In this document: positions 8,386 through 54,053 of the stretch, piece by piece
Numbering within the stretch: position 1 is the first letter of the stretch
How the letters are laid out: each line of letters opens with the position of its first letter
Source: Endocalyx cinctus
Taxonomy: Eukaryota; Ascomycota; Sordariomycetes; Amphisphaeriales; Apiosporaceae
Direction of reading: 5' to 3'
Assembly (NCBI GenBank): GCA_001600455.1
Contig: BCKC01000006.1
Location: 372,001 to 436,000, forward strand
Length of the DNA: 64,000 bases
The notes under the pieces: generated by a model
The model's input: the letters and a program-made list of their open reading frames with translations, nothing else
Databases searched by the model: none
Told to the model about the DNA's origin: nothing
Translations under genes and position numbers: made by a program

Positions 8386-10984
8386 TCAAAACGGCATACG
8401 CGGCTTCTTATTCCTCTGCTCGTTCTGCTCCTCCTCGCTCGAGACCGGACCCAACCCGGACGAGCCCTCCGTCTCCCTAACGACGCGTTCGAGCTCCTCC
8501 CTCAACCTCGCCTCCAGCTTATCGAGGATCCATTCGGCCTCCTCGCGCGTGTCCATCAGCGGACTTCTGTGCCCTAACCAAGACCATTTGGACGTATCGT
8601 CTACCTGCCCTCGCTGACCTTGTTCATCCGACTCGTCGGGGTTGGTGGTGGGTGTGGCGGGGACTTGGTCGGGTGTCGCGAGGTCTGATTGTTGTGGTGA
8701 TGATGATGATGGTTGTTGAGGCGGTTGATTGCCTTTTTTGTTCTTCACTTTCTTAAGGGGTTTTCGATGCGTTTCGGCGCTGCTTTCGTCTTCGCCTATG
8801 AGGCGGAGATACCAAGCCCTGTAGTATATATATATATATAATTAGCCACCAAGTATACAAAAAAAGGGGGAATAGTAGCATTGTATTAAAAAAAAAGTAG
8901 ACTAACCACTCCTTAAACGTATATTTCCGCGGCGGCGAATGCTGCAGATGCCTGGTAACGCGAGCGATCTCGTCGATGAGCACCAGGTGATACTGCGCGC
9001 GAGTTTTCGGCAGCTCGCTGGGCACGTCGGTCCGCGTAGGCGAGATCTCGCGCCCCGACGTCCGCTTCGGGCCGAGCGAGGTCTCGCCCCGGTCGCTCGA
9101 TCTCGGGTCCGACTCGATACTACCTTTCTCCGGATCCCCGTCCCCGTTCTTCTCGGTCGTATCGCGGCTGAGGTGGTGTCCGGCCGCGCTGCTAGCCTCG
9201 GACGGGCTTCGTTCCTCCTTTTCCGTCCCGGCTTCTTCTTCTTCTTCTTTTTCGTTCTCGTTCTCGTCCTCGTCATCTTCTTCATCGCGACGTCGACGAG
9301 CGGCGCCGAGGAAACCCGGCGGTAATTCCTCGATGTTATCCTCGGAGAACAAGACGCCGAAGGATAAGCGCGACAGGATCCGCTTCACCTCGCTCTTGAA
9401 GCCGCGCTCTCCCGGCAGGATGGTGAGGTTTCCGAGCAGGATGGTCCCGTCCCGGATCCCCCGGACGATGGTGTCGCCGGCGTTCGAGATCAGCACCGTC
9501 TGCGTCGGGAGCGCCAGCAGGGACCAGAACACGAAGAAGGCCTTTCCCGCGTTGGACACGGGCGTGAAGTCGCCGTACCCGATCGTCGTGAGGGCCTCGA
9601 ACGAGAAGTAGACGCCGTTGAAGTACGTCCAGTGCTGGTACGGCTCCTCGGAGACCTGAAAAATCTTGGCCCCGACCAGCCACAGGACCAGCCAGCTGCT
9701 CGTGGACACGCCCATGGCCGTCCACCGGCGCTTCGAGTCGGCCTTGTTTTGGATCTTGCGCATTAAATGAAACTCCTTCTGACGGCGCTCGAACTCGGTG
9801 CGCGGGCGCTTGATCCCGACCTCTTCCGGGTAGTAGTCGTAATCTTCCTCCATGATGGGTTCTAATATCCCCTGCTTGCCCCTCGAGGTCAACCGCCGGA
9901 TATACTGTCGTCGGCTCTTCTCCAGCATCCTCGCGTCCAGCCTGCGCTTCCCGCGGTCTAAGATCATGCTCCGGATGGACCCGATCACGAGACCGAAGCT
10001 GATGATACCGACGAGAGCGTACGGCAGCAGGAGGGCCTGGCCGAGGGTCGTCGTCGGGGAAATGTCGCCGTAGCCGACGGTGAAGAGCGTGACGTCGGCC
10101 CAGTACACGGCATCCAGATAATTCCAACCCTCGACGTTGGAGAAGACGAGGGCACCTCCTAGAAGGTAGCCTAAAAACATGATGGTTTGAAGCATGAGCG
10201 TGCGTTGACTCGTAGTCAATTCGAAATCCTTCGCGTAGTGGCCCTTCTCGGCGCCCCAGACGGTCACGACCATGAGCGAGGCGACGATAAAGTAGAGCAC
10301 GGCGGCGAACAAGCCGTAGTAAAACGCCTGGGACCAGACGTACTCGATCTCCGGTTTCAGCAGGAGGGGTCCGCTCGTCGTCGCGCATAAGGCGATGAGC
10401 AGGACGGACGAGATGTACCAGCCCGCGATGGTGACGGGCTGGGCGACCGAGAACCGGATCCGCTTCGTCATGTTCAGCAGCAGGAAGACGTTCGCGATGA
10501 TGGCGATGACGAGCTGCACGCCGTTGACGGCGTACAGCCAGGCCGGGTCGTCGACGTAGAGGGCGTGGGTGATGTCCGAGCCCGGCGGGATTCGCTGTCT
10601 CCAATTTTTCACTAGCGCACAGATGCTGAAGGCCGACGCGACGGGGCCGAGGGTACCGGCTGTAGCAGGATTTAAAAAAGGAACATGAGCTTAATTTGAA
10701 GACCTCATGCCGTGTTAAGGTTTACTACTAACCTATCATAGGAAAAGCGGATGAGGCAAACCACCATCGGCTTTATAAATTTAAGGTGTCAGAATCGGTG
10801 AGTCTTCCCCGAGATTTGTGCGATAAACCAAAAGGGGCGAAGGTAAATCATAGGTATTCACATACCTGGGATCTAGGTGAACCTGATCCGAGTCGAATAT
10901 ATTTCTATGTACATTGTCACGGTTGGCACCATCAACTGCTTTGGTATGATCACCGATATTGTTGTTTAGGTCTGCGTCATTCAT
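8386..10984 (-). CDS. TOK-type two-pore outward-rectifier K+ channel
   Basis: Exons 10984-10866, 10770-10733, 10659-8907 and 8818-8386 give 780 residues. The second exon is a 38-base micro-exon encoding RWWFASSAFPMI, which joins to AGTLGPVASAFSICALV, a strongly TOK-like start of the first membrane segment. Two pore loops carry the K+ selectivity signature: TLFTVGYGDISP and ALTTIGYGDFTP. Hydrophobic segments before and around them fit the eight-TM TOK topology, with four segments before the first pore loop. The family passes outward K+ current across the fungal plasma membrane, sensing voltage and external K+. The cytoplasmic tail has a Glu/Asp run (DEEDDEDENENEKEEEEEAG), is Arg/Ser-rich, and ends in a Pro/Gln/Ser-rich stretch. 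The coding DNA is very GC-rich, so long antisense frames here are shadows. The third intron contains a TA repeat. Confidence 0.95.
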
Positions 10985-53865: not shown

Positions 53866-53996
53866 GCCCGGTTAGCTCAATCGGTAGAGGTTAGTAAAAT
53901 TCGCCTAATCTTTCACACATATTCCAATGCTAACTCGGTATCTTCAGCGTGAGACTCTTAATCTCAAGGTTGCGGGTTCGACCCCCGCATCGGGCT
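53866..53996 (+). tRNA. tRNA-Lys (anticodon CUU) with a spliceosomal-type intron in the D-stem
   Basis: Without bases 53890-53947 the rest (73 bases) folds into a perfect tRNA: acceptor GCCCGGT/ATCGGGC, D-stem GCTC/GAGC, anticodon stem TGAGA/TCTCA with loop CTCTTAA (anticodon CTT), T-arm GCGGG-TTCGACC-CCCGC, discriminator T. The 58-base insert lies between nucleotides 24 and 25, splitting the D-stem GAG/C. It begins GTTAGT, has TGCTAAC 14 bases before its end (branch A 53933) and ends TCTTCAG, exactly like the mRNA introns of this window. It is not at the 37/38 site used by tRNA splicing endonuclease. A and B boxes are complete and a T8 terminator follows. It is either removed by the spliceosome (unprecedented to my knowledge for a nuclear tRNA) or the gene is inactivated. 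Confidence 0.9.
53890..53947 (+). other. 58-base GT-AG intron inside tRNA-Lys
   Basis: Five-prime GTTAGT (also the donor of two introns of the K+ channel gene), CTAAC branch element, short pyrimidine-rich TCTTCAG end. Length is typical of the protein introns in this window. Removal restores an uninterrupted tRNA. Confidence 0.85.
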
Positions 53997-54009
53997 CAAT
54001 TCCCGATGC

Positions 54010-54027
54010 CTCATTGAATACAATGAG
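54010..54027 (+). other. Hairpin in the tRNA-Lys trailer
   Basis: CTCATTG-AATA-CAATGAG is a perfect 7-bp stem with a 4-base loop, 13 bases after the tRNA 3' end and 18 bases before the T8 run. It would form in the primary transcript; role unknown. Confidence 0.75.
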
Positions 54028-54045
54028 ATGTCAATCCAAACATAA

Positions 54046-54053
54046 TTTTTTTT
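54046..54053 (+). terminator. Pol III terminator of tRNA-Lys
   Basis: Eight consecutive T on the plus strand, 50 bases downstream of the tRNA, a strong RNA polymerase III stop. It is rather distant, so the trailer would be about 50 bases. Confidence 0.65.

What the first reader, a model, noticed from the sequence alone, without database searches (positions are those of the whole stretch)
53866..53996. Nuclear tRNA-Lys(CUU) interrupted by an mRNA-type intron in the D-stem
Removing 53890-53947 gives a 73-base tRNA with every stem perfectly paired; keeping it destroys the D-arm. The insert sits between nucleotides 24 and 25, not at 37/38. It has GTTAGT, CTAAC 14 bases from the end, and TCTTCAG, the exact grammar of spliceosomal introns in this window (the same donor occurs at 10732 and 8906 in the K+ channel gene). 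The A box, B box and T8 terminator are intact, so the locus looks active. A Pol III transcript spliced by the spliceosome, or by an unknown pathway, would be remarkable; I know of mRNA-type introns in fungal U6 snRNA genes but not of one in a nuclear tRNA. Standard tRNA finders that only model anticodon-loop introns would miss this gene, making the genome seem short of tRNA-Lys(CUU).
Basis: partly seen in the sequence, partly recalled or inferred. Interest (0 to 1): 0.92.

Follow-up and report, generated by a model that had tools for sequence, protein, structure and literature searches.

The report
Messenger-type introns inside fungal tRNA genes
In a fungus, two copies of one transfer-RNA gene are cut in the same odd place by short inserts that look like the introns of protein genes, which suggests, but does not yet show, that the messenger-RNA splicing machine also matures some transfer RNAs.

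Summary
At 53866-53996 a nuclear tRNA-Lys(CUU) gene is split after nucleotide 24 by 58 nt (GTTAGT...GCTAAC...CAG); joined, the 73-nt exons fold as a cloverleaf. Five tRNA-Lys(CUU) genes were found in this genome (44.8 Mb; Xylariales by protein relatives), with identical mature sequence: two uninterrupted, one with 14 nt at the usual 37/38, this one, and a second split at the same place by 56 nt of other sequence, again GTCAGT...ACTAAT...CAG. Both inserts meet a published fungal spliceosomal-intron grammar; shuffled inserts do so 13 and 18 times per million. The insert bodies are no more alike than shuffled ones, while exons, splice signals and a 3' trailer are kept. Most likely these are real mRNA-type introns in Pol III tRNA genes, removed by the spliceosome; the tRNA endonuclease's BHB motif is absent. 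No RNA data or related species could be examined. Ten literature searches listed no nuclear tRNA gene with a spliceosomal intron.

The parts
53866..53889 (+). Exon 1 of tRNA-Lys(CUU), nucleotides 1-24, ending in GAG; holds the A box (53873-53884)
   Evidence: Identical to nt 1-24 of the uninterrupted copies L001 and L002; coordinates
53890..53947 (+). 58-nt insert with mRNA-type intron grammar: donor GTTAGT 53890-53895, acceptor CAG 53945-53947
   Evidence: Meets the published fungal grammar GTRWGT (one mismatch), RCTRAY, YAG; 13 of 1,000,000 shuffles do
53929..53934 (+). Branch-site-like GCTAAC; 14 nt follow the branch A before exon 2
   Evidence: the fungal range is 6-36 nt (PMC5832005, passage)
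53948..53996 (+). Exon 2 of tRNA-Lys(CUU), nucleotides 25-73, anticodon CTT, B box at 53975
   Evidence: Identical to the uninterrupted copies
53997..54045 (+). 3' trailer; its first part (to about 54034) is shared with the four other tRNA-Lys(CUU) copies; predicted to form two hairpins, the first with the acceptor 3' strand
54046..54053 (+). T8 run, likely Pol III terminator
   Evidence: function inferred

Best explanation
Two of the five tRNA-Lys(CUU) genes found in this xylarialean fungus carry a true U2-type spliceosomal intron between nucleotides 24 and 25. Pol III makes one precursor through exon 1 (A box), intron, exon 2 (B box) and trailer to the T run. The spliceosome recognises AG|GTNAGT, the branch site GCTAAC or ACTAAT and CAG, and removes 58 or 56 nt. 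Only then can the D arm form, and the tRNA is matured like that of the intronless copies. Shown here: anatomy, splice grammar, recurrence at the same site in a second gene, intact exons. Inferred: Pol III transcription, excision by the spliceosome, order of steps.
For: Two inserts at the identical site in two genes on different contigs, both meeting a grammar published for other RNAs (GTRWGT with one mismatch, RCTRAY 14 and 12 nt before the end, CAG): 13 and 18 per 1,000,000 shuffles. Insert bodies are unalike (30% of 5000 shuffled pairs score as well) while the exons agree at 73 of 73 nt and the trailers are clearly related. GTTAGT is the donor of 2 of the 5 introns that all six aligned homologues place in three protein genes of this window. 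The BHB pattern is not met in 3 of 3 registers of either copy. Precedent for spliceosomal introns in fungal small structured RNAs (U6, U3: PMC5832005, passages).
Against: No RNA evidence. Uninterrupted and 37/38-intron copies exist. Identical exons could be kept by gene conversion rather than by use. The one U6 gene found has no intron, so no other spliced Pol III RNA is known here. A search for further AG|GT inserts in other D arms gave 39 places, the two split genes included, against 42 for the reversed control pattern. Both donors have a pyrimidine at +3, off the consensus, and in the predicted precursor folds the donor is partly paired. The grammar is published, but I chose to allow one donor mismatch after seeing the inserts. 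No related species could be checked.
Confidence: 0.75

Rival explanations
1. Disrupted, unused copies: the split genes are relics covered by the three other tRNA-Lys(CUU) genes, and the inserts are never removed.
For: Three other copies encode the same tRNA; no expression data; a review holds insert-bearing copies among synonymous eukaryotic tRNA genes to be supposed pseudogenes (PMC4090602, passage).
Against: Both split copies keep all 73 tRNA bases, the A and B boxes, the trailer and a T run although the upstream flanks are largely unlike; both inserts keep splice grammar at the same site.
Confidence: 0.14
2. Ectopic tRNA intron cut by the tRNA splicing endonuclease (or a variant of it), as in Cyanidioschyzon merolae and perhaps in nucleomorphs.
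For: D-arm introns outside 37/38 exist in red alga and nucleomorph tRNAs (PMC3978253, PMC4090602, passages); two endonuclease-domain matches are present and copy C has a 37/38 insert.
Against: No bulge-helix-bulge in any of 3 registers of either insert: central helix at most 3 of 4 pairs, which 11,169 of 20,000 shuffles of insert A reach too. It would not explain GT-AG ends, branch site and donor in both. Many nucleomorph introns lack a defined BHB too (PMC3978253, passage), so its absence is not proof.
Confidence: 0.05
3. The split tRNA sequences are exons of longer Pol II noncoding transcripts and not used as tRNA genes; the intron is an ordinary Pol II intron.
For: Would explain the spliceosomal grammar without a spliced Pol III RNA; not tested here.
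Against: A and B boxes, trailer and T runs as in the uninterrupted copies; the splice junction would have to restore the cloverleaf exactly in both genes.
Confidence: 0.05

Closest known systems
mRNA-type introns in fungal U6 snRNA and U3 snoRNA genes
   Same: Short GT-AG introns with fungal donor and branch consensus inside small structured RNA genes; paralogues with and without the intron in one genome; intron sequences diverged beyond recognition between clades (U3: PMC5832005, passages).
   Different: Here the host is a nuclear tRNA gene whose internal promoter the intron splits (A box in exon 1, B box in exon 2), and one tRNA family seems to use two splicing systems. PMC5832005 (2017) says that U3 and U6 are so far the only small structured RNAs known to be often interrupted by an intron (passage).
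Canonical nuclear tRNA introns (37/38, tRNA splicing endonuclease)
   Same: Nuclear tRNA gene with one intron; copy C of the same family has such an insert (14 nt).
   Different: Position 24/25 and spliceosomal end and branch signals.
Ectopic D-arm tRNA introns of Cyanidioschyzon merolae and of cryptomonad nucleomorphs
   Same: Eukaryotic tRNA genes interrupted in the D arm (PMC3978253, PMC4090602, passages).
   Different: C. merolae introns are described as BHB introns and those of Guillardia theta as 3-24 nt long (same passages); here 58 and 56 nt, GT-AG, branch site, no BHB.

Membership tests
U2-type spliceosomal intron | GT-AG ends in the register that restores the exons | tested here: met
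   Both inserts, 1 of 3 possible registers each
U2-type spliceosomal intron | Fungal donor GTRWGT with at most one mismatch | tested here: met
   GTTAGT and GTCAGT, one mismatch each, at +3 (consensus from PMC5832005). GTTAGT is used twice in the K+ channel gene
U2-type spliceosomal intron | Branch site RCTRAY 6-36 nt before a YAG acceptor | tested here: met
   GCTAAC, 14 nt; ACTAAT, 12 nt; CAG in both
U2-type spliceosomal intron | Excision through a lariat by the spliceosome | not testable with these tools
Nuclear tRNA-Lys(CUU) gene | Cloverleaf with CUU anticodon, A and B boxes, terminator | tested here: met
   After joining the exons; identical to uninterrupted genes scoring 70.3 bits
Nuclear tRNA-Lys(CUU) gene | Transcription by Pol III into a tRNA that is used | not testable with these tools
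Canonical tRNA intron (endonuclease, 37/38) | Intron one base 3' of the anticodon | tested here: not met
   The insert lies after nucleotide 24 in both split copies
BHB (archaeal-type, C. merolae) tRNA intron | Two 3-nt bulges around a 4-bp helix at the splice sites | tested here: not met
   Central helix 3, 1, 2 of 4 pairs in the three registers of each copy; exon helix 0-1 of 3, intron helix 0-2 of 3
tRNA pseudogene | Degenerate tRNA sequence or lost promoter or terminator | tested here: not met
   73 of 73 exon bases identical to the intact copies; A and B boxes and T run kept. That the insert stays in the RNA, which would also make it a pseudogene, was not testable

The most novel reading that the evidence does not exclude
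A second route of tRNA maturation exists in fungi: some Pol III pre-tRNAs are spliced by the spliceosome, side by side with endonuclease-spliced and intronless copies of the same tRNA, so that output of these genes depends on mRNA-splicing capacity, and the arrangement is old enough for two intron bodies to have diverged completely.
Probability: 0.58. Interest if true: 0.92.

Novelty: new variant of a known kind. Interest (0 to 1): 0.85.

Why it matters
tRNA splicing and mRNA splicing are taught as separate systems with separate machines. A nuclear tRNA whose insert has the full spliceosomal grammar, found twice at one site beside intronless and endonuclease-type paralogues, offers a natural test of whether the spliceosome can act on a Pol III tRNA precursor, of how introns enter structured RNA genes, and of how many such genes are overlooked or written off as pseudogenes.

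Tried and rejected
Considered and rejected: the only tRNA-Lys(CUU) of the genome (four others); a decayed pseudogene (exons intact); a BHB intron; chance; a general habit of this genome's tRNAs (pattern for AG|GT inserts in other D arms: 39 places, the two split genes included, against 42 for the reversed control; among the 58 RF00005 matches only the two split Lys genes score below 45 bits; only 63 of 1473 candidates were scored there, and Rfam finds a tRNA in L062 that the list lacks; of 30 B-box loci read, L054-L083, 4 hold a tRNA over Rfam's cut-off and none a second interrupted one that reaches it); an intron in U6 (one full-length match, uninterrupted).

Led nowhere: sister relation of copies A and B from upstream flanks (60 nt: 1.2% of shuffles score as well, but D-E is 0.4%, and two of the three Thr control pairs are at 1-2% over 100 nt); trailer covariation (2 pairs with both sides changed, yet 78 of 500 shuffles reach that); pattern scans of viral contigs (2) and genome contigs (1), 0 hits (these collections are not of fungi); species comparison (no relatives held).

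Papers: search listings. Passages seen: PMC13130702, PMC3978253, PMC5832005, PMC11408192, PMC12707824, PMC4090602. Canzler et al. 2016 on U6 introns is not held: known from the reference list of PMC5832005 and from recall only.

Full report
What is there. The window is C6:372001-436000 of a 44.76-Mb genome in 15 contigs. The best named protein relatives of three of its genes are from Annulohypoxylon (P450), Anthostomella (K+ channel) and Daldinia (DnaJ), all of the order Xylariales. At 53866-53996 the sequence reads exon 1 (24 nt), a 58-nt insert, exon 2 (49 nt). Joined, the exons give a 73-nt tRNA-Lys(CUU) with all four stems in the predicted fold; unjoined, the D arm is lost.

The gene family. 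A search of the whole genome with the joined 73-mer finds five genes (a lower bound by the tool's own note), read in full. D and E (C10:1538822 and C10:1580992) are uninterrupted. C (C10:593856) has 14 nt at 37/38, the canonical place. B (C10:21841-21969, minus strand) is split after nucleotide 24, as is the window copy A, by 56 nt of other sequence. Without inserts 5 of 5 equal the same 73-mer. So one tRNA family has three architectures: none, endonuclease-type and mRNA-type.

Splice grammar. A paper on fungal U3 introns gives donor GTRWGT (nearly two thirds; nearly all others with one mismatch), branch RCTRAY, distance to the acceptor 6-36 nt, YAG (PMC5832005, passages). A: GTTAGT, GCTAAC, 14 nt, CAG. 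B: GTCAGT, ACTAAT, 12 nt, CAG. With one mismatch allowed anywhere in donor positions 3-6 and any junction register, 13 of 1,000,000 shuffles of A and 18 of 1,000,000 of B pass; of window stretches of the same length 2 of 127,884 (58 nt, A being one of the two) and 1 of 127,888 (56 nt) pass. An earlier test with a stricter donor of my own choice (GTNAGT, also after seeing them) gave 0 and 1 of 400,000, with a looser one 22 and 7 of 400,000. Spliced alignment with six homologues for each of three genes (of 120 listed for each) places five introns with 6 of 6: donors GTTAGT twice (K+ channel, 10732-10660 and 8906-8819), GTAAGC, GTATGT and GTGAGT; placements with less support in that call are not used.

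Selection. Insert bodies of A and B, without first six and last three bases, are as alike as shuffled ones (30% of 5000 reach the score). Upstream flanks are mostly unlike. Over 100 nt A-B is at 1% and D-E at 3% of 400 shuffles, the other 8 of 10 pairs at about 22% or more. Over 60 nt D-E is at 0.4%, A-B 1.2%, C-E 2.3%, A-C 4.5%; over 150 nt B-E 1.5%, A-B 3.9%, the other 8 above 6%. Among the controls two of three Thr pairs are at 1-2% over 100 nt, so such values may reflect shared promoter make-up. In contrast the 45 nt after the gene are alike in 10 of 10 pairs (0 of 400 shuffles each); the next 100 nt are under 5% in 3 of 10 pairs. So the flanks have had time to diverge while exons, trailer and splice signals stayed. 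Gene conversion could explain the exons, not the splice signals within diverged inserts. Whether the two inserts descend from one intron or came in twice cannot be told.

The trailer. All five copies share CAATTCCCGRTGCCTC, a hairpin and a GATRTCA block before the T run. Trailers of three tRNA-Thr(AGU) genes and two tRNA-Gly(UCC) genes (these two not identical to each other) of the same genome show no such likeness (4 of 4 pairs at 30% or more of shuffles). The first hairpin uses the acceptor 3' strand (GCATCGGG with CCCGRTGC) and so would compete with the acceptor stem. Covariation is not above the shuffled control. The trailer is common to split and unsplit copies; it shows only that the split genes are complete units.

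Which machine. A bulge-helix-bulge is absent in all three registers of both copies. Passages say that yeast Sen54 probably touches the D arm (PMC3978253, PMC4090602), which the insert destroys. Two endonuclease-domain matches are present, as expected for 37/38 introns. The spliceosome is thus the likely machine; precedents are U6 and U3 (PMC5832005). The one full-length U6 found here is uninterrupted.

How finders see it. ARAGORN as set finds no tRNA in the window. With introns allowed it calls copy A tRNA-Pro(CGG), copy B tRNA-Gly(CCC), and also the ordinary 37/38 copy C tRNA-Trp(CCA), so its misreading is not special to the split copies. Rfam's tRNA model gives A 29.6 and B 29.2 bits against a cut-off of 29, A by borrowing intron bases as a D arm; C scores 58.7 over its full length. 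tRNAscan-SE was not available.

Known or new. A 2024 review states that eukaryotic tRNA introns are consistently at 37/38 (PMC11408192, passage). A 2014 review says that insertions in D or T arms of eukaryotic tRNA genes mostly occur in one of many synonymous genes and are supposed to mark pseudogenes, and names nucleomorph and red-alga exceptions (PMC4090602, passages); the word stem spliceosom occurs 0 times in it. That view speaks against my reading in general; here two genes, not one, have the insert at one site with splice grammar. The listings show no nuclear tRNA gene with a spliceosomal intron; most subscription papers and preprints are not covered. I call it a new variant of a known kind: spliceosomal introns in small structured RNA genes, in a new class of host RNA.

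Limits.

Noticed in passing
53997-54045, and after each of the four other tRNA-Lys(CUU) genes (L001, L002, L009, L010): A conserved, probably structured 3' trailer of about 40 nt before the T run, shared by the five tRNA-Lys(CUU) genes but not seen in Thr(AGU) or Gly(UCC) controls; its first hairpin would compete with the acceptor stem. Perhaps a small RNA or a processing signal.
   Followed up: partly
   Followed up: partly
L009:1501-1587 (G000:C10:593856-593942): tRNA-Lys(CUU) copy with a 14-nt insert at the ordinary place 37/38, so that one tRNA family shows three gene architectures.
   Followed up: yes
L062:1490-1602 (C1): A tRNA gene (ARAGORN: Met(CAT) with a 41-nt intron; Rfam 49.9 bits) that the genome-wide RF00005 list lacks, so that the list is incomplete.
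   Followed up: partly
L074:2115-2269: Match to snoRNA snR80 (43.4 bits, cut-off 40) in the same 3-kb stretch as a tRNA that ARAGORN calls Lys(TTT).
   Followed up: no
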